DNA of 64,000 nucleotides from an uncultured Candidatus Saccharibacteria bacterium (GTDB taxonomy: Bacteria; Patescibacteria; Saccharimonadia; Saccharimonadales; UBA4665): NCBI GenBank assembly GCA_946482575.1, contig CAMLRZ010000003.1:1-64000 (forward strand), in the 5' to 3' direction. Below, one piece after another: positions 14,237 to 25,808 of the stretch. Each line of letters begins with the position of its first letter. Within the stretch, counting starts at the first letter, position 1. The notes under the pieces are model-generated. The model was not told the DNA's origin. It ran no database searches and worked only from the letters and a program-made list of their open reading frames with translations. A program made the position numbers and the translations under genes.

Positions 14237-14311
14237 TGGTGACCTCACGGAGAATCGAACTCCGGTTGCTGGGATGAGAACCCAGTGTCCTAGCCGCTAG
14301 ACGATGAGGCC
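14237..14311 (-). tRNA. tRNA-Glu (anticodon CTC)
   Basis: 75 bases with encoded CCA. The acceptor stem is GGCCTCA / TGAGGTC, the anticodon loop TTCTCAT gives CTC, and the T arm contains GTTCGATTC. It reads GAG only, so a second Glu tRNA (TTC) must exist elsewhere. It stands next to the GC-rich island, whose Glu codons are mostly GAG. Confidence 0.95.
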
Positions 14312-14608: not shown

Positions 14609-14887
14609 TCAGCCGCAGGCGATCTCGCTGCTGACGGTGATCACGTGCGTGGCCGCGCCGACCGGCACGATGGTGTCCGGCGTGATGGCCCGACCGTCGA
14701 GGTACACCACGTCGCTGTCACCCACGGTGACGCCGGCCTGGTCCAGGTAGAACTGGACGGTGCGGTCGGTCTCCTCGGGGATGTCGACGGAGCGGCCCTC
14801 GGGGTCGAAGACCTTCACCGGCGCGGCCAGCTGGGTCTCCTCGGCGGTGGTACCACCAGCGGTGGGGCTGAGCGTTGCTGCGGGCAT
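14609..14887 (-). CDS. Ubiquitin-like beta-grasp protein
   Basis: 92 residues. After a polar 20-residue leader, residues 23-88 show a beta-grasp pattern: strand VKVFD, turn, strand SVDIP, helix TVQFYLDQAG, strand VVYLDGR, then TIVPVGAATHVITV. The segment VYLDGRAI...VPVGA resembles the MoaD/ThiS/multiubiquitin turn. It ends A90-C91-G92, so the terminal Gly needed for adenylation is present without the usual Gly-Gly. An AGAGGAGAAC Shine-Dalgarno precedes the ATG. It is the last gene of the E2-like/E1/Ubl set and begins 19 bases after the E1 stop. The fold and role are inferred from pattern and context. Confidence 0.65.
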   Translation of the reverse strand: MPAATLSPTAGGTTAEETQLAAPVKVFDPEGRSVDIPEETDRTVQFYLDQAGVTVGDSDVVYLDGRAITPDTIVPVGAATHVITVSSEIACG

Positions 14888-14906
14888 GATGTTCTCCTCT
14901 TGCTCT

Positions 14907-15611
14907 TCAGAGCGTGTCAGAAGTTGTGCGGTGCATGGTGTCCAGATCCTCGGCTATGACTGCCTTGGGCATCGCTCCTTCCGGGGTTTCGATGCGGGTG
15001 ACCCACAACCGGTACTGGCCAACGGCCAGCGAGGCCACGGTTTGGGCCGGGTCGATGACCGCGCGCTCAGCGCACGGAAGCGGTTGGACCTGGGAGTCGG
15101 GCCGCAGGTACAGCGGGCTGGTGTAGCGCTCCGCAGCTTCGGTGTCCGCGGGGCTCAGCCGCACGATCTTGATTCGCGTGCGTCCCACCCGAAGGTCGAA
15201 GAACTGCGGCACGGCGGCCATGCTGGCCTGCGCGGCGGTGAAGACCTCCCGACGCGACTCCAGCGAGTCCGTACAGGCGAACACCACACCGCTCAGCGGG
15301 GAGTTGGCCGTGACGAACTCACGATGCAGCGTCAGCTCGGTGGCCAACTGCTGTCGCCTCAGGAACGCTTGGGCGGCGTCCACCTTGAAGGTGCCCACGT
15401 CGTCCTGACGGTAGACGTTGTTCAGCGTCGGGAGGTTGTGGGCCTCAACGCGGTCACCGTCCCAGATGTCCATGCTGCGAACGCCCATGCTCGCCAGCGT
15501 GGCGATGACGTGACTGCCGATGCTGCCGGCGCCCACCACGGTGACGTGTTGGTATCCGGCGATATCGGGGTCGAACAGTCCGCGCTGGTTGGCATACCGA
15601 TCGTTCCTCAT
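14907..15611 (-). CDS. ThiF/E1-like adenylyltransferase
   Basis: 234 residues. The nucleotide loop G27-A-G29-S-I-G32 follows a beta strand; D51/D53 and the NNVYR68Q...K76 stretch match the ATP and catalytic Arg/Lys positions of ThiF/MoeB/E1 enzymes, and FACTDSLESR (D115, R120) matches the A-D-N-x-x-x-R motif. C180 in LPCAERAVIDPA is the candidate thioester cysteine. There is no CxxC zinc pair and no rhodanese or E2 fusion. It should adenylate the C-terminal Gly of the protein encoded next. Its ATG overlaps the stop of the E2-like gene as ATGA, with GAGGAG upstream. Confidence 0.85.
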   Translation of the reverse strand: MRNDRYANQRGLFDPDIAGYQHVTVVGAGSIGSHVIATLASMGVRSMDIWDGDRVEAHNLPTLNNVYRQDDVGTFKVDAAQAFLRRQQLATELTLHREFVTANSPLSGVVFACTDSLESRREVFTAAQASMAAVPQFFDLRVGRTRIKIVRLSPADTEAAERYTSPLYLRPDSQVQPLPCAERAVIDPAQTVASLAVGQYRLWVTRIETPEGAMPKAVIAEDLDTMHRTTSDTL

Positions 15612-16867
15612 ACGTTCTCCTCTGCAATCTGCACGAAGGCTCGTGGAACCCTATGCACATGCTCCGAATTGACAGTGTGAAGTCCCTGCACTGCGAGTGC
15701 GGCTGCCTCCAGAACCTGTCCTTGGACAAGGTGGGTGTTGATGAGCGTTTCGTGCTGCCCAAAGCAGAACTTTTTGCCCATCCGATAGACCGGCGCGCCA
15801 CCACTCCAGCTTGCGAGCACGCCTGAGCGGAGCTCGATTGCCTTGACCGTTCCGGTCAAGTCCAGGTGAAGGTCCCAACTTCCCAGGTCGTAGCGGTTTC
15901 CTTGGTGTTCAAAGGTGGCCGCCACCATGAGGGCGATGGTGGTGTCACTCACCGGTCGCACACCCTGTACCCCAGGAAGTTGCTGAAGCCGATCGAACTC
16001 CTTTTCCAGCAGATCATCCGCGGGCGGACCCGGCTCGGCGATATCGTGGATCCGGGCCGACTCGGCCTTCAGTCGCAATTGCTTGTGCTGCGCCTCCTGG
16101 AGCTCCTTGGCCAGTTGGCCACAGAGTTCACGAACATCCTCCAGGTCACCGTTTACTTTTTCTTTGTAGAACTGGTGACCGGTAGCTGTTCCCCGCTGCC
16201 GCATCTGCCAATAGGTTACCTTGGCACCGGCAGCATCAGGTATGAAGCTTCGCTGCCGCTTGGTCCTGGGCTGTGTGGTGCGTTGTTGCGGCGGCTTTAT
16301 GAGCATTCGCACGCCACTGACGGCGAACGGGAGCCATAGCACCGGTATCCACAGCGCGAACCACCAGACCCACGGCCTGCTCCACGGTAGATCAGCCAGG
16401 TAGTGGTGCCGGTCCTTGCAGTCCCAGTAGTACACCACGCCGAGCATCAGGCTGCAGGCGACCGCCGTACATGCGATCCAGGCCAGAATCCAGTCGTATA
16501 TGAAAGGACTCCAGGACAAAGGGTCGGTCGTAGTCCAGCCGCCGCTGCCCGTTCGCTCCACGGCATTGAGCATCCACCGGAAAGTCGAGTCGTCGAGGGC
16601 GTCGGGCGCGAGCCCTTGGCTGTGTAGCCACAAGAGGTTGGTGGCTACTGCCTGGCGCTCATCGGGGCTCTGGGCGGCGAGCGTGTCAACCACATGAAGC
16701 TGGGCGTTATAACGCTCCACGCTATTGAACCATATGTAGGTGTATCGCACGGTGATGCCGATCAGGCCTAGCCCGCTCAGTGCAGCTACCAGACGATAGG
16801 CATTGGAATAGGAGTCCATGCGATCCCAGTGCTTACTCGAGGTGTAGTTGGTCCGCTTTATGGGCAT
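15608..16867 (-). CDS. Membrane-anchored E2/UBC-like protein (putative)
   Basis: 419 residues. Hydrophobic segments at 24-46, 123-147 and 165-188 anchor it; a basic linker and a coiled coil (about 240-275) follow. Residues 284-405 resemble a UBC/RWD fold: helix LLEKEFDRLQQL, then strands IALMVAATFEHQGNRYDLGSW and DLHLDLTGTVKAIELR, then KKFC368FGQ with a helix ending LHTVN, as in prokaryotic E2-like proteins where Cys precedes a (W/F)G. C368 is therefore the candidate active site; no HPN tripeptide is present. It is the first gene of the set, with AGGGAG upstream of the ATG and a 124-base leader. The E2 call is inference; the membrane topology is clear. Confidence 0.55.
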   Translation of the reverse strand: MPIKRTNYTSSKHWDRMDSYSNAYRLVAALSGLGLIGITVRYTYIWFNSVERYNAQLHVVDTLAAQSPDERQAVATNLLWLHSQGLAPDALDDSTFRWMLNAVERTGSGGWTTTDPLSWSPFIYDWILAWIACTAVACSLMLGVVYYWDCKDRHHYLADLPWSRPWVWWFALWIPVLWLPFAVSGVRMLIKPPQQRTTQPRTKRQRSFIPDAAGAKVTYWQMRQRGTATGHQFYKEKVNGDLEDVRELCGQLAKELQEAQHKQLRLKAESARIHDIAEPGPPADDLLEKEFDRLQQLPGVQGVRPVSDTTIALMVAATFEHQGNRYDLGSWDLHLDLTGTVKAIELRSGVLASWSGGAPVYRMGKKFCFGQHETLINTHLVQGQVLEAAALAVQGLHTVNSEHVHRVPRAFVQIAEENV

Positions 16868-16886
16868 AACGCTCCCTGCGCGAGGA

Positions 16887-16935
16887 TATATCGGGCCAAA
16901 AACTCAGAATATTTCTGAGCTCATAGCCCGATATA
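16887..16935 (-). promoter_or_regulatory. Nested palindrome in leader of the E2-like gene
   Basis: Outer arms TATATCGGGC / GCCCGATATA (10 of 10) enclose an inner CTCAGAA / TTCTGAG (7 of 7). In RNA this would form a two-part stem 20 bases before the start codon and could hide or expose the ribosome-binding site; as DNA it could be an operator. CAGAAT recurs twice just upstream. Confidence 0.6.
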
Positions 16936-16990
16936 ACACGTGATCAGAATGTTAAAAAACAAAGGTCAGAATTACTCTGGCCCGGGTGAA

Positions 16991-17001
16991 TTTATATCAT
17001 A
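16991..17001 (-). promoter_or_regulatory. Extended -10 promoter of the Ubl/E1/E2-like operon
   Basis: Minus strand TATGATATAAA, 124 bases before the E2-like start. Confidence 0.5.
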
Positions 17002-17020
17002 AGTACGTCCACGGGGCAAT

Positions 17021-17045
17021 AAAAAACACAGCTTTCGCTGCGTGT
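17021..17045 (-). terminator. Intrinsic terminator after the coiled-coil gene
   Basis: Minus strand: ACACGCAGC GAAA GCTGTGT followed by TTTTTATT. It separates the 410-residue gene from the E2-like operon. Confidence 0.85.
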
Positions 17046-17180
17046 CGTTCTAATGTGTGGTGTCTTCGGAAAGGAGGCTGCAGCTGATGCTTGGTGTCGC
17101 GATTGCGACGCATCGAACTGCAGCGCTCCCCTCCTTCAGGTGGTCACCTCAGTGGTGGCCGGGGGTGTGTAGTGAGTGGA

Positions 17181-18392
17181 TCACTCCTTGTGGTTGTCGT
17201 AGTGGTAGGGGTCGGCCTGGGGCTCGACGGAGCCGTTGCGGCGCGGGCCGAAGCCGAAGCTGCCGAGCCCGCCGGAGCTGGGCTGCGAAGGGCCGCCGAA
17301 CGGGTGGACGGCGACGTAGTCGAAGCCGGCCGACGGGTCGTCGCCCAGGCCCAGGAAGGCGTTGAAGAAGTCCTTGCACTCCGGGCAGTTCTCCCCGCCG
17401 GTGTGGCTGGGTTCTTCGCCGAAGCGCAGGAGGTCCGTGAGGCTCAGGCCACCCGTGGCCTTGCGCGTCAGCTTCTCGGAGTACTGCACGGCTGCCTCGG
17501 GCTCCGCGTAGATCCGGGCCAGCTCCTCGGTGGTGAGGTGCGGGACGCCGGTGCGGAACCAGTTGTTGGTCGTCCGACGCAGCACGCCCTCCAGCGTCTC
17601 GCGGCCGTGCTGGCTGAGTCCGGGCACGCGGGAGTTGGGTCGGGTCTCCAGGACCACCGGGACCAGTCGCGGCAGGTCGGAGTCGTTGGCCGACTCGAGC
17701 ATGACGTGGTCCCGCATCATGCCGATGGTGTCGGGCGCCTGGGCGCGGACGGTGAACTTGAAGCCCGAGAGCTCGAACGACGTGGTGACGGTGTCGCCCA
17801 GCACGTGGAGCTCGCCCGGGTGCAGACCCGATCGCACGTTCTTGGCGCCGGCGGCGAGGAGCTGGATGAAGCTGTTGACGATGCCGTGGACGTCGCGGCG
17901 GTAGGTGTCCACCCGCTGCATCATGCCGATGATGTCGTTGAGGCTGGCGATGCGCGTGTTCTTGCCGTCGAGCTCGCGACCGTGCCGCTCGGCGATCTCC
18001 TGCTGGTCGGCCATGAAGTCCTCGCCGAGCTTCGCCAGGGCGGCGTCTTTCTCGGCGTTGAGCTCCGCGCGGAGCGTGTCGAGCATGGCCTGGGCACCCT
18101 GTCGGGCGTTGTTGCTGGCCTCCTCCAGGCGCTGGTCGATCAGCTGCTGGATGCCCTTGGCGGCGTTCTGGATGGCCGACGGCTTGTCGGTGACGTTGTC
18201 GCCCTGCAGCAGCCACGCGATGACCTCGGGGTCCCACAGGAGCGCGCTGGCGTCGACCAGGTCGTTGTGTCGGGCGATGAGCTCCTTCATGGCGGTGCCG
18301 TAGTTGCCACGCGGTGACGGTACGAACTTGCCGCTCTCGTCGAAGTTGCCCTTCGGCTTCTGCTCTTCGGGGGTGCTGGATTTGCTGCTCAC
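17181..18392 (-). CDS. Coiled-coil protein of unknown function, GC-rich island
   Basis: 403 residues from GTG at 18392, which has AAAGG seven bases upstream; an ATG at 18413 with a weaker site is also possible (410 residues). Residues about 85-160 form a charged coiled coil, the middle is mixed alpha/beta, and near the C-terminus GENCPECKDFF gives a C-x-x-C pair before a Gly/Ser/Pro-rich tail. No membrane segment. I recognise no family. It lies directly upstream of the Ubl/E1/E2-like genes on the same strand but has its own terminator, so it may be an accessory or target of that system, or unrelated. Confidence 0.7.
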   Translation of the reverse strand: MSSKSSTPEEQKPKGNFDESGKFVPSPRGNYGTAMKELIARHNDLVDASALLWDPEVIAWLLQGDNVTDKPSAIQNAAKGIQQLIDQRLEEASNNARQGAQAMLDTLRAELNAEKDAALAKLGEDFMADQQEIAERHGRELDGKNTRIASLNDIIGMMQRVDTYRRDVHGIVNSFIQLLAAGAKNVRSGLHPGELHVLGDTVTTSFELSGFKFTVRAQAPDTIGMMRDHVMLESANDSDLPRLVPVVLETRPNSRVPGLSQHGRETLEGVLRRTTNNWFRTGVPHLTTEELARIYAEPEAAVQYSEKLTRKATGGLSLTDLLRFGEEPSHTGGENCPECKDFFNAFLGLGDDPSAGFDYVAVHPFGGPSQPSSGGLGSFGFGPRRNGSVEPQADPYHYDNHKE

Positions 18393-18876
18393 GGATGTAC
18401 CTTTCGGTCTCATGCGGTGCGCACTTCCCTGTCCCTAAATCAGACAGTTGCGTATGGACGCAAAAAGTTTCCACTTGTACACATTGTGAAAGCTCGTGGA
18501 ACTTCAGAAGGCTGCTAAAGGTTTTTTACAAAACCGCTAGCAGCCGCCCAAAGCTCGACACGAGCTTGCTTTCAGTTTGGCTAAGCCAAAAAAGCTGAAC
18601 AGACATACTTTACACTATTTTTGCACTTTATTCAATATGTGCCGTACAGGTGTACGTAAAATGATCCAAATTAACAGCGGTTGCCGTTAAAAAGTCCTTT
18701 TCTTTTTAACGAACTTATGGTAACTTTTACAAGTCAAAGCGCTAATGGTGGGTTCGTTGGAGCGCTTTGGAGTAAAGCGCTCCTTTTAAGATAAAAGTTT
18801 TGTTACATTTTGTTTTTACGCTGGCCCAATGGTCGAGCGCTTATTTTTTATTGTCAAAAAAATAATGGGAGGATAC
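18393..18876. other. Divergent regulatory region with several hairpins
   Basis: No supported gene in about 480 bases. It holds stems at about 18507-18542 (GGCTGCTA / TAGCAGCC), 18551-18571 (AAGCTCG / CGAGCTT) and 18759-18783 (GGAGCGCTTT / AAAGCGCTCC, then TTTTAA). The last is terminator-like on the plus strand, 94 bases before the fibre-like gene, so it could attenuate it. Confidence 0.6.
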
Positions 18877-20556: not shown

Positions 20557-22023
20557 TTACTTGATGGGCTTGTCCAGCCGCAGGATGGTGATGTCCTCCT
20601 TGAAACCGCGGAAGGTCTTGAGCTTCGTGGCCGAGGCCAGGAGCTCGTTGACGGTGTGCGTCCGCGGCGGCTGCTGGGTGTGGGAGTTGTAGGTGATCAT
20701 GTACGTGGCCCCGTGGCAGGCGCCCGCGTGGGCGATCTTGCAGTAGGGCTGCGTGATGACGCTTCCGATGGACTCCTCGGTGACGACCTGGGCTTCCCTG
20801 GGGAGGTGGTTCTCGGTCCAGATGGCCGTGGCCTTGAGGGCGTTGTCCGTACTGCCGGCGATCCTCACGGCGAAGGCCGTGGTGTTGGCTGCGATGAAGC
20901 AGACCATGGCCGCGACCGCGATCAGGGTCAGGCGCCGCTGGGAGCGGTGCCTGCCGGTCTCGCGCTCCTCACGGCTCGTTGCTCGCTGCTGCAGCTCGCT
21001 GGCGAGGTAGCAGACCACGGGCACGATGACCATGATGAAGTAGTGCGGCAGCCAGAGCTGCATGAGGCCGAAGCACAGCAGCCCCGCCGCCGCGAACGAG
21101 AACAGGATGGGGTTGGAGCCGAAGGGCTTGACGTTCCGGCCGCGGATGGCCTGGATGACGCGCACGATCACCACCACGAGCCCGATGGCGACCAGCAGCA
21201 CGGTGATCACGAAGATCTTGTACTGCATGACCAGCGGGTCGATGATGTCGCTGAAGCTGTTGATCGCCCCGCGTGACTCGCGCATCCCGAGGATGCGCTG
21301 CACCTGGACGGTCGATTCGCTCCAGTAGCTGGTGCCGTAGATCACGGACATCAGCCCGACGTACAGCGCCAGGAGGGCGCCGATGGTCGCGATCAGAGCC
21401 GTGTGCAGGCCGTGCTTGACTCGGATGATGAGCCAGTTGATCAGCACGGCCACGACGAAGTAGATCCCGACGTGCTTGTAGACCGCGACCAGGCCGAGAA
21501 CGGCGCCCGCCGCGACGAACTTGCCGAGGCTGGGGCTTTTGAGCGCCCGGGTGTACAGCCAGAGGCCGACGATTCCCAGGGGCATCATGGTGTTCTCGAT
21601 CCAGCCTACTCTGGCCGTGAATACGACCCAGCCGTCGATGGCCAGGATCGCGGTTGCCACCAGGGCCCACTTGTCGCCGATCAGGCGCCGCAGCCAGAAG
21701 GCGACGACGACCAGCATCAGCAGTGAGCCACCGGCCGCCAGCACTCGTGCCGAGGGGATTCCGGTGCCGAACAGGCGGAACCAGAGCCCCAGGAGCATGA
21801 AGTACAACGGGGGGTGGTAGAGATAGGCCTCGGACGTGAAACCGGCTTCGGTCTTGGCCTGCAGCAGGTCGTGCTGGGCCATGTTCGAGCCGATGACCTG
21901 GTACACCGACTCATCCCAGTCGTAGCCGGGGCGAGTGGCGATGTTCCAGAACCGCAGGAGCCCGGCGATGACCAGGACGATCGAGAGCGCGGGTATGAAC
22001 CGGCGCTCGATGGTGCTTCTCAT
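20557..22023 (-). CDS. GT39/ArnT-like membrane glycosyltransferase
   Basis: 488 residues with about ten hydrophobic segments. The first loop carries PGYDWDESVYQVIG: an Asp-Glu pair after segment 1 is the catalytic signature of GT-C enzymes using polyprenyl-phosphate sugars (protein mannosyltransferases, ArnT). It would transfer a sugar from a lipid carrier to protein or glycan on the outer side of the membrane. GC-rich codons throughout. AGAGAGG precedes the ATG, and the GtrA-GT2 gene ends 33 bases upstream, so the two are co-transcribed. Confidence 0.82.
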   Translation of the reverse strand: MRSTIERRFIPALSIVLVIAGLLRFWNIATRPGYDWDESVYQVIGSNMAQHDLLQAKTEAGFTSEAYLYHPPLYFMLLGLWFRLFGTGIPSARVLAAGGSLLMLVVVAFWLRRLIGDKWALVATAILAIDGWVVFTARVGWIENTMMPLGIVGLWLYTRALKSPSLGKFVAAGAVLGLVAVYKHVGIYFVVAVLINWLIIRVKHGLHTALIATIGALLALYVGLMSVIYGTSYWSESTVQVQRILGMRESRGAINSFSDIIDPLVMQYKIFVITVLLVAIGLVVVIVRVIQAIRGRNVKPFGSNPILFSFAAAGLLCFGLMQLWLPHYFIMVIVPVVCYLASELQQRATSREERETGRHRSQRRLTLIAVAAMVCFIAANTTAFAVRIAGSTDNALKATAIWTENHLPREAQVVTEESIGSVITQPYCKIAHAGACHGATYMITYNSHTQQPPRTHTVNELLASATKLKTFRGFKEDITILRLDKPIK

Positions 22024-22056
22024 GGGTGTGCCTCTCTGAGAGTTGAATGCCCTTGC

Positions 22057-23658
22057 CTACGCGAAGCGCGGCGTGGGGATGGCGGTTGCGATGGTCGGGC
22101 TGTCGGGCTGCACGAAGTGCAGCTTGTGCAGCGTGGGCTTGATGAGCTCCTTGTTGGCCAGGAGGCGTCCGGTGAAGCCGATGATGAACATCGACCCCAG
22201 CAGAAGCGAGATGAACGGGTAGCTCATCGCCTCCAGACGCCGGACCTTGATCGCCACGGCCGAAGCCAGCGCGATGCTTGCTCCCAGGCCGCCGAGAACC
22301 GTGTAGACGGGAGCGGCCACCAGCAGCACGAACATGGCGAGCATCAGACCGTAGAAGGTCAGGAGCTGCCGGACGCGCTTCTGAGCGAAGACGCACTGCC
22401 CGTAGCGGGTGTTCACGAGGTCGCCACAGCCCTTGCCCGATCGCTTGTACTCACGGATGAGTGGCCGGAGCCCCTCGCGGTGGTACCGCTCACAGGCGAG
22501 TGCCTTGTCGCAGAGGATGTTGTAGCCCCCCTGGACCATGACCGACATCCAGCTGTAGTCCTCGTACGAGTTGGTGAACGCGGGGTCGGGACCGCCCACC
22601 GCCTCGTATAGCTCGCGAGTGATCGCGAAGTTGGCGGTGACAGGCGGCTTCCGACGCTTGAGCGTCTGCCTGTTGAGAACGTAGCCGGCGGAGATCCGGG
22701 GCATCTTGCTGGCGGCCGGGTTGCGGTCGATGTAGCGGGTCCAGAACGAATCGCCCAGACCACTGACCGGACCGGCCACTGCGTGGATGTTTCCCTGGAG
22801 CCGACTTGCCACTTCGAGCGCCCAGGTGGGGCTCGGGATGACGTCGTCGTCCATGGCAGCCAGGATGTTGGACCCGATCGACGCATGACGCAGTCCGATG
22901 GACCGCTTCATGTTGGAGTCGCGACCCGGCGACGAGATCTGAGCGGCGTACCGCTTGATCAGGGGGCCGAACCGTTCGAGGTGTCGCCATGCGCCGTCAC
23001 CGATGTCACCGACGACGATGATCTCCAGGCGGTGCGGGTACTGCTGTGCGAGCAGGGCCTCGACGGTCTTGACGATCCGTACGTCCTCGTTGACGCCGTC
23101 CTGCACGTTCTTGGTGGGAAGTACCACAGAGAACGGCGGGGCGCAGTCGGCGGTGGGCGACATGGGTGTCTCCTTGTTGTCGGGGGCGGTTTCGGTGCCC
23201 GTGGTGGTTTCTTTGTCGGCGGTCTTGCTGCGGAACACGAACCGGTCGCTCAGCACATAGTTGACGATCGTCGTGGCGACGATGCACAGTGCGTTGGCGA
23301 ACAGGTAGTGGACGCCCGCCCAAACCAGGCCGTTAAAAAGCGCTTGGTTGAGCGGAATGGTGATGACCAGGCGAACGGAGTGGAACCGTCGCCAAGCACC
23401 AGGAGCGCGTCGGTCGCCAAACGTGAACCAGTAGTTGAGCACAAAGTTGAGCTCAATCGAGATCACGGTCTGGACGACGTAGGCCACGCTGGTGTTCCAG
23501 TGCCAGATGTCGACAGCGATGAACATCACCGCGTAGCCGACCAGCGTCACGAAGACACCGACACACCCAAAAACAATCTTACGGGTATGCCTCTGTAGAA
23601 ACTGGATGGCCTTGGGGCTAGAGCGCACCGTCTTGCGACGATGTTTTGCCTCCGCCAT
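22057..23658 (-). CDS. GtrA-like flippase fused to GT2 glycosyltransferase
   Basis: 533 residues from ATG 23658 (AAGGG about nine bases upstream; a TTG at 23700 lacks such a site). Residues about 10-145 form the four-helix GtrA domain (FGCVGVFVTLVGYAV, NFVLNYWFTFGDRR). Residues 175-440 are a GT-A domain (FSVVLPTKN, the DDD of AAMDDDVIPSPTW, SYEDYSWM), and two or three hydrophobic segments close it. GtrA proteins flip or handle polyprenyl-phosphate sugars, while GT2 enzymes make or use them; here one polypeptide does both. It precedes the GT39 gene and follows a GT2 gene, suggesting one envelope glycosylation pathway. Confidence 0.85.
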   Translation of the reverse strand: MAEAKHRRKTVRSSPKAIQFLQRHTRKIVFGCVGVFVTLVGYAVMFIAVDIWHWNTSVAYVVQTVISIELNFVLNYWFTFGDRRAPGAWRRFHSVRLVITIPLNQALFNGLVWAGVHYLFANALCIVATTIVNYVLSDRFVFRSKTADKETTTGTETAPDNKETPMSPTADCAPPFSVVLPTKNVQDGVNEDVRIVKTVEALLAQQYPHRLEIIVVGDIGDGAWRHLERFGPLIKRYAAQISSPGRDSNMKRSIGLRHASIGSNILAAMDDDVIPSPTWALEVASRLQGNIHAVAGPVSGLGDSFWTRYIDRNPAASKMPRISAGYVLNRQTLKRRKPPVTANFAITRELYEAVGGPDPAFTNSYEDYSWMSVMVQGGYNILCDKALACERYHREGLRPLIREYKRSGKGCGDLVNTRYGQCVFAQKRVRQLLTFYGLMLAMFVLLVAAPVYTVLGGLGASIALASAVAIKVRRLEAMSYPFISLLLGSMFIIGFTGRLLANKELIKPTLHKLHFVQPDSPTIATAIPTPRFA

Positions 23659-23757
23659 GCGGCTAAACCCTTCTTGTATCCTGTGGGTATTAAAGAACAA
23701 GCCCCGAATGATTTACCATTCGTGGCCGTAAAGCGTGCAAGCGAACTTACGAATAAA

Positions 23758-23768
23758 ACAATAACATA
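23758..23768 (-). promoter_or_regulatory. Extended -10 promoter of GtrA-GT2/GT39 operon
   Basis: Minus strand TATGTTATTGT, 100 bases before the ATG at 23658. Confidence 0.4.
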
Positions 23769-23941
23769 TTTTTAGTATTTACGCAACAAAAAACATATGC
23801 CACAAGCTGTTTTTGTAAAGATGTCAGGCAGTACCCTTGCAAAAATAGCTTGTGTGCGTGGGCAGTCGATTTCTGGTGGCTGGATTGCCAAAGAAAAAGA
23901 CTGCCCCATCGGTGGCCCGATGTAGCACATTCACGCTGTAG

Positions 23942-24796
23942 CTAGCTGATGCGAATCGGCAGTGTGCGGAGTCGGTGTTCCAGCAGCTGGCTCAGGAAGG
24001 TAAGACCTTCCTTGAGGTTTCCCTTGCTTTCGCCGCCGCCGCGCTCACCGAAGATGAACGGGATTTCTGAGCGGCTGAGTCCGGGGTGAGAGAGCAGCGT
24101 CTCCACGAGGATCTTGAAGCCTTTGGGCCGCAGGAGGTCCAGCTTGAGCGCACTGCTTCGGAATCCGTAGAACCCGGTCATGGGGTCGCTGATGCCGCGC
24201 AGGCGCTGCGGGAACAGCCCCTTGGCCAGTCCGGTGGACCCGCGAGAGGCAAAGACTCGCCAGGTGTCGGCAAGGCCTTCGTTGCTGCCGCCCTTGGTGT
24301 AACGGGTTGTTGCCACGAGGTCGACCGCGTCCATCTCCTTGAACAGAGGCGGGATGTAGGCGGGGTTGTGCTGCAGGTCACCATCCATGACGATGATCCT
24401 CAGGCTCTTTACATGCCTCTTCGCCATGGCGCGTGCCTCTTCGATCCCGTGCTTGACAGCACCGGACAGTCGGCCAGGCCGCTGGTTTGCAGGACGAACG
24501 ATGTGCACCACGCGCAGGTATGCGCAGTTACCGCCGCAGAAGTCACGGGTGGTTTCCTTGGAGGCGATGGCACCCTTTTCGTGGTCGCTGTCGTCAACGA
24601 AGATGACCAGGAGCGGGACGGTGAGCTGGTGCGCGATGTCGTGGAGTCCGGGCTGTGAAGTCAGGCGGGGGTGATCCGCGGTGCCCTTGAGCATATACGG
24701 AACGTTTTCCTCCTCGTTGCGGATCGGCACGATCACCGCGTGAGTGTACGCGGTGGCGTCTGCCAGTGTCTCGTTGGCCAGCTGGGCAAAGGTCAC
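23942..24796 (-). CDS. GT2 glycosyltransferase, polyprenyl-phosphate sugar synthase-like
   Basis: 284 residues. The GT-A core shows AVIVPIRNEEENV, VIFVDDSDHE and IVMDGDLQHNPAYIPP (the D-x-D-type metal site), as in Dpm1/polyprenyl-phosphate hexose synthases. There is no C-terminal membrane domain. Product would be a polyprenyl-phosphate sugar that could feed the GT39 enzyme encoded nearby. GTG start with GGAGAG upstream; promoter box 84 bases before it. GC-rich codon use. Confidence 0.82.
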   Translation of the reverse strand: MTFAQLANETLADATAYTHAVIVPIRNEEENVPYMLKGTADHPRLTSQPGLHDIAHQLTVPLLVIFVDDSDHEKGAIASKETTRDFCGGNCAYLRVVHIVRPANQRPGRLSGAVKHGIEEARAMAKRHVKSLRIIVMDGDLQHNPAYIPPLFKEMDAVDLVATTRYTKGGSNEGLADTWRVFASRGSTGLAKGLFPQRLRGISDPMTGFYGFRSSALKLDLLRPKGFKILVETLLSHPGLSRSEIPFIFGERGGGESKGNLKEGLTFLSQLLEHRLRTLPIRIS

Positions 24797-24879
24797 GATT
24801 CTCTCCGAGTCTCGGGGTGTTACAGATGAATGTGCTGAGAGTGAATGTTCGACGTCCCTGTAGAGGATAGTCGCGCAAG

Positions 24880-24890
24880 ATTATATCATA
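24880..24890 (-). promoter_or_regulatory. Promoter of the GT2 gene
   Basis: Minus strand TATGATATAAT; TTTACT lies 17 bases upstream of the TATAAT as -35. Confidence 0.65.
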
Positions 24891-24945
24891 AAATTGACCA
24901 AAAGTAAATTCACCGAAGGATAGTTGGAAATGGACACAAAAAAAC

Positions 24946-24964
24946 ACAACCGTTGTGGTTGTGC
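24946..24964 (-). terminator. Intrinsic terminator after the 242-residue gene
   Basis: Minus strand CACAACC ACAAC GGTTGTG followed by seven T. A longer imperfect stem (24979-25055) lies between it and the stop codon. Confidence 0.85.
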
Positions 24965-25079
24965 GATATTCGGTGGTTCGGGACGGAGTCTGCAGTAGTG
25001 TTGTTGATGCGGTCGCAGAAGCGACAGCGAACACGTACCACAGACTCACGTCCGTCACCGTTCAGTTGTTACAGATGGA

Positions 25080-25808
25080 TCACTCCTGGGGGTCGGTGGA
25101 GCCGGGCTCCTGGGTGGTTTCGACGTAGGGGTCGAGCAGCTCATCGGCGCGGCGACGGCCGTGGACGAAGGCGCGAGCCAAGTTGGCGGCGTGCGTGGCT
25201 TCGGGGTCGGCGTCGGGTGCCAGGTCGGTGTTGCCCAGGGCGGTGAGCTGGCCGAGCAGCATGCTGCGGCGGACCATGCCGTGGGCGAAGGAGGCGTCGA
25301 GCGGGTTGAAGACGGTGTTGGGGTGCGGCGTGTGCCGGAAGAGCTCGCCGGTGGCCATCTGGTCGAACTGCGCGCGGCGGCGCTGGGTGCGGCGTGCGGC
25401 CAGCTCGTCGAACATGCCCCGTGAGCGGTCGGTGACGGTGTTGGTGACGTCGTTGACCGAGCCGTAGTCGGTGTCGCCGGTGTGCGCGTCCATGTCGTCG
25501 ATGATGATGAGGGCGATGGGCGGCAGGACCGGCATGGCGATGATGCTGAACAGCTCCTGCATGTCCGCGAGGGTCATGAGCAGCTGCAGCGGGGTCATAC
25601 CGAGGATCTCGGCCATGGCCAGCAGTTCGTCGGTCGTGCTCATGGCGCGAGCCAGCCCGATCAGGTAGCCGAGGCTGTCCTCGTCGTTGACCGAGCCGTA
25701 GGACACGTACGGGTCGATGTCCATGACGCGGTCCAGCTCTTCCAGATCCCGCAGAAAGCGCGAGATGTTGCCGGTGTTCTGCTCGTCGTACGGGTTGCTT
25801 CCGGACAT
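25080..25808 (-). CDS. Unknown soluble protein, GC-rich cassette
   Basis: 242 residues, acidic, mainly helical. The hexapeptide YGSVND occurs twice (about residues 37 and 116). One hydrophobic stretch (FSIIAMPVLPPIALIIID, about 87-104) could be a buried helix or a membrane segment. A basic run RRTQRRRAQ follows in the middle. I recognise no family. AGGAG precedes the ATG, and it stands alone with its own promoter and terminator. Confidence 0.7.
   Translation of the reverse strand: MSGSNPYDEQNTGNISRFLRDLEELDRVMDIDPYVSYGSVNDEDSLGYLIGLARAMSTTDELLAMAEILGMTPLQLLMTLADMQELFSIIAMPVLPPIALIIIDDMDAHTGDTDYGSVNDVTNTVTDRSRGMFDELAARRTQRRRAQFDQMATGELFRHTPHPNTVFNPLDASFAHGMVRRSMLLGQLTALGNTDLAPDADPEATHAANLARAFVHGRRRADELLDPYVETTQEPGSTDPQE

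What the first reader, a model, noticed from the sequence alone, without database searches (positions are those of the whole stretch)
14609..16867. Compact membrane-tethered ubiquitin-like conjugation cassette (Ubl + E1 + E2-like)
Three tightly coupled genes (4-base overlap, then a 19-base gap) encode a beta-grasp protein ending in Ala-Cys-Gly, a ThiF/E1-like enzyme with nucleotide loop, Arg/Lys pair and candidate C180, and a three-helix membrane protein whose cytoplasmic end looks like a UBC/RWD fold with C368. Known bacterial Ubl operons usually include a JAB peptidase and a soluble E2; none is seen here, and membrane anchoring of the E2 would place modification at the envelope. The Ubl tail has one Gly, not Gly-Gly, with Cys before it. 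It could modify envelope proteins, or work in defence or host contact.
Basis: partly seen in the sequence, partly recalled or inferred. Interest (0 to 1): 0.88.

Follow-up and report, generated by a model that had tools for sequence, protein, structure and literature searches.

The report
Membrane-tethered bacterial ubiquitin-like tagging cassette
Three coupled bacterial genes look like a stripped-down ubiquitin-type tagging system whose transfer enzyme sits in the cell membrane and which has no removal enzyme nearby, an arrangement that would mark something at the membrane, probably for good.

Summary
The trio is real and correctly placed. On the minus strand a 419-aa membrane protein (16867-15608) overlaps a 234-aa ThiF/E1 (15611-14907) by 4 bases; a 92-aa protein ending Ala-Cys-Gly (14887-14609) follows after 19 bases. 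The E1 is unambiguous (ThiF 2e-19); its C180 is Cys in 20 of 20 aligned E1s, 11 of them phage. The C-terminal domain of the 419-aa protein is very probably E2-like (UBC): UBC-like predicted topology; of the 50 listed structural matches, the 41 in that domain are all UBC/UEV/RWD-type; and the family profile finds, in viral locus L018, an ORF placed between E1 and JAB with an HPH..C-x-G motif (E 8e-6; hhalign 83%), C368 on its Cys. C368 (8/8) and the tail EIACG (6/6) are invariant. No JAB was found in the window (0 of 820 ORF segments; held-out controls 9/9). Unusual points: a membrane E2 without HPH/HPN, a Ubl ending at Gly as encoded, no JAB. Likeliest mechanism: an E1-E2 relay attaching the Ubl, one-way, to a membrane-proximal target. 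Chemistry, target and role are inferred. Weak points: low-confidence Ubl model, middling structural scores, unresolved topology, co-travel seen only indirectly.

The parts
14609..14887 (-). 92-aa candidate Ubl modifier; beta-grasp-like order over about residues 24-86, C-terminus Ala-Cys-Gly with no extra tail (Gly92 codon 14612-14614)
   Evidence: sequence; EIACG invariant 6/6; beta-beta-alpha-beta-beta-beta order, mean pLDDT 50; the listed matches are largely ubiquitin-like/beta-grasp chains; Foldseek none at E<=0.001
14907..15611 (-). 234-aa ThiF/E1-like activating enzyme; catalytic Cys candidate C180 (codon 15072-15074), K76, D51/D53, N59
   Evidence: PF00899 2e-19, 70.1 bits, cutoff 28.1; UBA7 2.5e-12, NEDD8 E1 5.5e-12; C180 20/20
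15608..16867 (-). 419-aa membrane protein with C-terminal E2-like (UBC) domain
15620..16018 (-). E2-like (UBC) domain, residues 284-416, with candidate active-site C368 (codon 15764-15766)
16046..16234 (-). Long predicted helix (coiled coil?) residues 212-274, contains invariant C249
   Evidence: helix 212-274, block pLDDT 53-75; weak coiled-coil matches; C249 invariant 8/8
16298..16792 (-). Membrane module residues 26-190: three hydrophobic segments with a conserved ~68-residue segment between the first two, probably outside the cytoplasm (inference)
   Evidence: hydropathy in 8/8 relatives; invariant residues between Y53 and W119
16885..16937 (-). Strong hairpin/dyad just upstream of the E2 start codon; possible leader or operator, role unknown
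   Evidence: 313-nt intergenic stretch folds at z -7.9, 0 of 100 shuffles as stable
17026..17043 (-). Terminator-like hairpin with T-run between the upstream 410-aa gene and the trio; would make the trio its own transcript
   Evidence: consensus match; 5 sites found in the region against 4.2 in shuffles, so not evidence by itself

Best explanation
A minimal, probably one-way ubiquitin-like conjugation cassette. The Ubl is encoded with its reactive glycine already at the C-terminus, so no processing peptidase is needed (tail shown by sequence; reactivity inferred). The ThiF-type E1 adenylates Gly92 and captures it as a thioester on C180 of its adenylation domain (inferred from conserved residues and homology). 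The Ubl passes by trans-thiolation to C368 of the E2-like domain (inferred). That domain hangs on a long helix from a membrane module (shown at the level of sequence and model), so transfer happens at the inner face of the membrane, to a membrane-proximal protein or to the E2 itself (inferred). The E2 has no HPH/HPN motif, like UFC1 (TAK), so the last step must use other residues or a non-standard acceptor (inferred). With no JAB found nearby, the tag is expected to be permanent (inferred). The cassette would derive from the phage/bacterial Ubl-E1-E2-JAB kind by loss of JAB and replacement of the E2's N-terminal module by a membrane module (inferred from L018).
Confidence: 0.6

Rival explanations
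1. The UBC-like domain is an inactive, RWD/UEV-type adaptor. The E1 charges the Ubl, and the membrane protein only recruits Ubl or E1 to the membrane, with C368 conserved for another reason (structure, disulfide).
For: HPH/HPN is absent in all 8 family members; UEV (TSG101) and RWD chains score as well as E2s; inactive E2-like proteins are described in bacterial polyUbl operons (PMC1779556, section 14); a second Cys (C249) is invariant too.
Against: C368 is invariant in an invariant FCFG block and aligns with the Cys of the L018 ORF, which keeps HPH; RWD-type domains lack the Cys (PMC1779556; for UEV recalled); UFC1 works without HPN (PMC7602216, passages).
Confidence: 0.17
2. Sulfur-carrier system: E1 and Ubl make a Ubl thiocarboxylate for a membrane-linked sulfur transfer, as ThiF/ThiS or MoeB/MoaD do.
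For: Single-domain ThiF of minimal size; ThiF/MoeB structures are among the matches; the Ubl model also resembles MoaD and TtuB.
Against: Scores far below curated cut-offs for ThiF (55.3 of 275.25 bits) and MoeB (21.8 of 376.55 for TIGR02355, 40.4 of 266 for NF004281); the tail is Cys-Gly, not Gly-Gly; no sulfurtransferase or cofactor gene in the Pfam scans of 30 neighbouring ORFs; the E2-like partner is unexplained.
Confidence: 0.1
3. Anti-phage or stress immunity: the cassette is a mobile defence module like Bil/Bub, with the membrane E2 tagging virion parts or triggering membrane-level death. This is a statement of role and does not conflict with the mechanism above.
For: Foreign base composition (GC3 0.71-0.91; 31 other listed genes 0.43-0.70); near a tRNA gene; few relatives found (7 for E2, capped to 7998 scored candidates); bacterial Ubl operons appear to act mainly against phages (PMC12687455, passage); Bub operons are often next to DNA-damage regulators (PMC13373217, passages).
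Against: PADLOC on the trio and the 410-aa protein gives only generic E1 matches, plus a weak ZorA match of the 410-aa protein; no integrase or recognised defence gene in the Pfam scans of 30 neighbouring ORFs; no flanking repeat at the tRNA; related cassettes sit in phages themselves; the same EMBO J paper says Bub operons have not been shown to protect against phage.
Confidence: 0.35
4. Chance assemblage: a ThiF-family enzyme beside two unrelated proteins.
For: Ubl sequence similarity to known Ubls is not significant.
Against: 4-base overlap and 19-base gap; relatives turn up on contigs of identical length (8394 for all three; 2910 and 2840 for E2+E1; 4715 for E2+Ubl); the L018 locus has E1, the E2-like homologue and JAB together.
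Confidence: 0.03

Closest known systems
Cassette of IMG/VR contig 3300001986_000001 (L018) and the looser phage E2-JAB-E1 cassettes among L001-L017
   Same: Single-domain ThiF E1 with the same Cys; E2-like ORF with a C-x-G motif; small candidate Ubl ORFs nearby in several; in L018 also a long helical stretch before the E2 part and significant E2-domain homology
   Different: They keep HPH before the Cys (14 of 14 E2-motif ORFs read) and have a JAB-motif ORF (16 of 18 loci: next to E1 in 15, after E2 in L018; in the other two E1 lies at a contig end); no membrane module in the 11 checked; candidate Ubls of L001 and L018 end Gly-Ala rather than Gly
Bacterial Ubl operons of Iyer et al. 2006 (PMC1779556), especially type 6d (that 6d is PRTRC is recalled)
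   Same: Small Ubl with conserved terminal Gly, E1-like, E2-like lacking the classical His
   Different: There JAB is always fused or adjacent (section 14); type 6d has a conserved His after the Cys and an alpha-helical partner; PRTRC ThiF model 23.5 of 144.75 bits here; no membrane E2 in section 14 or the passages seen
Bil (BilABCD) and Bub operons
   Same: Ubl + E1 + E2 conjugation in bacteria
   Different: BilA is a two-domain Ubl processed by the JAB BilC to bare its Gly (PMC11354881, passage); Bil and Bub are described as in some cases complete with a specific protease (PMC12687455, passage). The primary papers were not held
Type II CBASS Cap2 (E1-E2 fusion)
   Same: E1 and E2 activities; Cap2 and CdnG-E2 among the structural matches
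   Different: E1 and E2 are separate genes here, a candidate Ubl is present, and no CD-NTase appears in the Pfam scans of 30 neighbouring ORFs
Eukaryotic UFM1 pathway (UBA5-UFC1) and ATG12/ATG8 pathways (works like)
   Same: Single C-terminal Gly; E1 with its Cys inside the adenylation domain; E2 without HPN (UFC1 has TAK; PMC7602216, PMC8304084, passages); ATG12 needs no processing and has no deconjugase, ATG8 goes to a lipid (recalled)
   Different: No orthology claimed; UFM1 is processed by proteases and needs an E3; E2s there are soluble (recalled)

Membership tests
ThiF/E1-like superfamily | PF00899 fold with nucleotide-binding GxGxxG and conserved Asp/Lys | tested here: met
   70.1 bits, cutoff 28.1; G27, G29, D51, D53, N59 in 19 of 19 rows with a residue there, K76 and C180 20/20
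E2/UBC superfamily | UBC fold | tested here: inconclusive
E2/UBC superfamily | Active-site Cys | tested here: met
   C368 8/8, aligned with the Cys of the L018 motif; activity untested
E2/UBC superfamily | HPN (or HPH) motif before the Cys | tested here: not met
   x-P-V-Y in the family against H-P-H-V in L018; UFC1 also lacks it
Ubiquitin-like beta-grasp modifiers | beta-grasp fold | tested here: inconclusive
   Element order and listed matches fit, but model pLDDT 50, Foldseek none at E<=0.001 and no profile match
Ubiquitin-like beta-grasp modifiers | C-terminal Gly | tested here: met
   G92 6/6
Iyer-type prokaryotic E1/E2/JAB operons | JAB fused to or adjacent to E1 | tested here: not met
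   0 of 820 window ORF segments; held-out controls 9/9; rule stated in PMC1779556 section 14
PRTRC system | PRTRC_ThiF model above cut-off | tested here: not met
   23.5 bits, cutoff 144.75
Bil/Bub operons | Dedicated protease of the cassette (JAB in Bil) | tested here: not met
   No JAB found in the window; other protease types were looked for only by Pfam on 34 ORFs. Bub membership could not be tested by model: primary papers not held
ThiS/ThiF or MoaD/MoeB sulfur carriers | Curated ThiF/MoeB score and Gly-Gly tail | tested here: not met
   55.3 of 275.25 and 21.8 of 376.55 bits; tail Cys-Gly
UFM1-like pathway | Biochemical UFMylation-type relay | not testable with these tools
   Analogy only

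The most novel reading that the evidence does not exclude
A receptor-type E2: the conserved ~68-residue segment outside the membrane senses something in the envelope or outside, and through the transmembrane module and helix switches on a cytosolic E2 that attaches the Ubl irreversibly to a membrane-embedded acceptor, possibly a membrane lipid amine as with ATG8, or the E2 itself. This would be a bacterial transmembrane signalling system whose output is Ubl conjugation rather than phosphorylation.
Probability: 0.18. Interest if true: 0.88.

Novelty: new variant of a known kind. Interest (0 to 1): 0.62.

Why it matters
In the bacterial E1/E2 operons surveyed in 2006 a JAB peptidase always sits by the E1 (PMC1779556, section 14), and Bil needs its JAB to ready the Ubl. 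A cassette reduced to Ubl, E1 and a membrane-embedded E2, with a ready-made Gly terminus and no JAB nearby, would show how little is needed for Ubl conjugation, would place it at the bacterial membrane, and would give a three-gene system simple enough to rebuild in E. coli. It also ties an E2-like family with no Pfam entry to a phage cassette.

Tried and rejected
Relatives in GTDB genomes: none confirmed with the E2 profile or the E1 profile. Viral contigs with the E2 profile: none. Plasmids and phages by tblastn of the E2: none. E1 against plasmids (7 records, at most 35% of the query) and phages (9 records, up to 80%): distant only. Viral scans with P0015, P0016, the Ubl profile and the 410-aa protein: none; with L018's E2-like ORF only itself, and none in plasmids.

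Ubl-to-phage-Ubl profile comparison: the six candidates together score 12.2, within the shuffles (best 12.7 of 60); the best single one, L018, 14.8 (1.4%, E 0.037) has no matched control and is not significant; HMM none of 7. PDB sequence search with the E2 family: only chance matches to coiled-coil, membrane and other unrelated proteins; with the phage E2-like ORFs: none (A4) or mostly coiled coils (L018). Insertion at the tRNA: no direct repeat of 18 or more bases involving it (shorter repeats not tested). The upstream 410-aa gene as a fourth member: no homologue in phages, plasmids or viral contigs, weak coiled-coil-type matches, a terminator-like hairpin in between; left out, not excluded. 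RNA family in the structured intergenic region: none but the tRNA. That I found no description of a membrane E2 of this kind rests on searches in the held open-access library alone; the hits were seen as listings, passages (and for PMC1779556 section 14) of seven papers were read, and the primary Bil/Bub papers are not held.

Full report
What is there. Upstream lies a 410-aa gene (18413-17181), separated by 313 nt that hold a terminator-like hairpin (17043-17026, though such sites are hardly more frequent in the region than in shuffles) and a strong hairpin just before the 419-aa gene (about 16885-16937; the whole stretch folds at z -7.9). Of 39 genes measured, the trio and the 410-aa gene have GC3 0.71-0.94, four genes in a second block (20557-25808) 0.79-0.93, and the other 31 have 0.43-0.70. 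So the trio was probably acquired from a GC-rich source. A tRNA-Glu lies at 14237-14311, but no repeat of 18 or more bases supports insertion there.

The E1. The 234-aa protein is a ThiF-family enzyme (2e-19, 70.1 bits, cutoff 28.1). A profile of nine members matches UBA7, NEDD8 E1, ubiquitin E1, MoeB and ThiF in the PDB. It is far below the curated cut-offs of the ThiF, MoeB and PRTRC-ThiF models. In an alignment of 20 E1s (nine of this family, eleven phage) C180, K76 and D139 are identical in 20 of 20. R68 is conserved in the family but, in the alignments, falls on the second Arg of NLSRQFLFR; the place of the first Arg is Thr, Ala or Val in 9 of 9. A review lists MoeB Arg73, Lys86 and Asp130 with their UBA1 counterparts (PMC12355090, passages); that Arg73 is this first Arg is recalled. 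So 'Arg/Lys pair' is only half right.

Sequence evidence is independent of the model. The E1 profile drew 18 distant viral loci. Sixteen of 18 have a JAB-motif ORF (next to E1 in 15, after the E2-like ORF in L018; in the other two E1 lies at a contig end), and 14 of 18 an ORF with an H-P-H...C-x-G motif (several loci are near-duplicates). Named phages look alike: Dulem virus 41 and bajarodcaudo virus 1 have an H-S-H...C-x-G ORF and a JAB before E1, and Xanthomonas phage PhiXhv-12 an 892-aa ORF with HPH...CLG before E1 (the two JABs by held-out HMM). These 'E2' ORFs have no credible Pfam, NCBIfam or PDB match where scanned: their naming rests on the motif and on standing beside E1 and JAB. In L018 the order is small candidate Ubl, E1 (frameshifted), E2-like, JAB. 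The family's UBC profile aligns with the L018 ORF over 115 columns (probability 83.2, E 8.8e-6, score 38.7), C368 on the Cys of HPHVDSNGKACWG; 100 shuffles reach score 17.4 and 22 other phage proteins 18.6. A HMM of the family picks that same ORF from the six-frame translation of L018 (E 8.2e-6) but finds none in eight other phage loci; L022 alone, L001 alone and the other eight together do not match (0.2-1.3%), and all eleven together reach 28.5%. So the link is to the L018 type, in which HPH stands where this family has x-P-V-Y.

The membrane module. Three hydrophobic segments recur in 8 of 8 relatives; the eleven phage ORFs have no comparable segment (peak 0.75-1.56 against 1.96-2.41). In the window's protein, charges favour the N-terminus (K+R 5, D+E 2) and the stretch after the third segment (6 and 1) on the inside and residues 52-119 (4 and 8) outside; residues 148-165 are neutral (3 and 3). 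That needs one segment, most likely the proline-broken third (LWIPVLWLPF, in a stretch of block pLDDT 47-57), not to cross fully. This is inference. Residues 52-119 hold many invariant positions, which would suit an external sensing or docking role.

No JAB. A HMM from nine phage JABs finds none among 820 window ORF segments of 40 aa or more, and no JAMM-like motif was matched. With each JAB held out in turn (L003 and L007 held out together, being close) the same procedure finds it in its locus, 9 of 9, and nothing in the window. Pfam on 34 window ORFs shows none. Iyer et al. state that in their operons JAB is always fused or adjacent to E1 (PMC1779556, section 14). BilA must be trimmed by JAB to bare its Gly (PMC11354881, passage); here the gene already ends at Gly. 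Lack of JAB and a ready-made tail fit together: no maturation needed, and no reversal. The rest of the genome could not be searched.

Do the genes travel together? Relatives of all three have a longest contig of 8394 bases, E2+E1 2910 and 2840, E2+Ubl 4715. Equal lengths are indirect evidence; the contigs themselves could not be fetched.

Verdict. It would work most like a one-way, membrane-placed UFM1- or ATG12-type relay; it does not meet the tested features of PRTRC, Bil-type or sulfur-carrier systems. I rate it a new variant of a known kind.

Noticed in passing
L022 238-2916 (Xanthomonas phage PhiXhv-12) and L001 2587-3630: Phage ORFs with an HPH...C-x-G E2-like motif and a Cys-rich C-terminus (RING-like by eye), next to E1 in L022 and to JAB and E1 in L001. 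E2-like and zinc-type regions in one phage protein look unusual.
   Followed up: partly
L020 1221-4651 and L021 517-4648 (Dulem virus 41, bajarodcaudo virus 1): Possible Ubl, E2-like, JAB and E1 ORFs in a row close to a primase gene; all but E1 annotated as hypothetical.
   Followed up: partly
L018 7872-8545: The E1 gene of the viral cassette is split by a frameshift into two overlapping ORFs.
   Followed up: no
window 17181-18413 (-): 410-aa gene, GC3 0.94, coiled-coil-like, with a CPEC motif and Gly-rich tail; no homologue found in phages, plasmids or viral contigs.
   Followed up: partly
window 20557-25808 (-): Second block of foreign composition (GC3 0.79-0.93 in four genes) with PMT_2, GtrA/glycosyltransferase-2 and glycosyltransferase-2 genes; perhaps a separately acquired surface-polysaccharide island.
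   Followed up: no
window 16885-17140 (-): Two long hairpins in the intergenic region before the trio (z -7.9 for the stretch), no Rfam match; leader, operator or mobile-element end unknown.
   Followed up: partly
window 16121-16123 (-), residue C249 of the 419-aa protein: A second invariant Cys (8/8), in the long helix before the UBC-like domain; could be a disulfide, a regulatory site or an auto-modification site.
   Followed up: no
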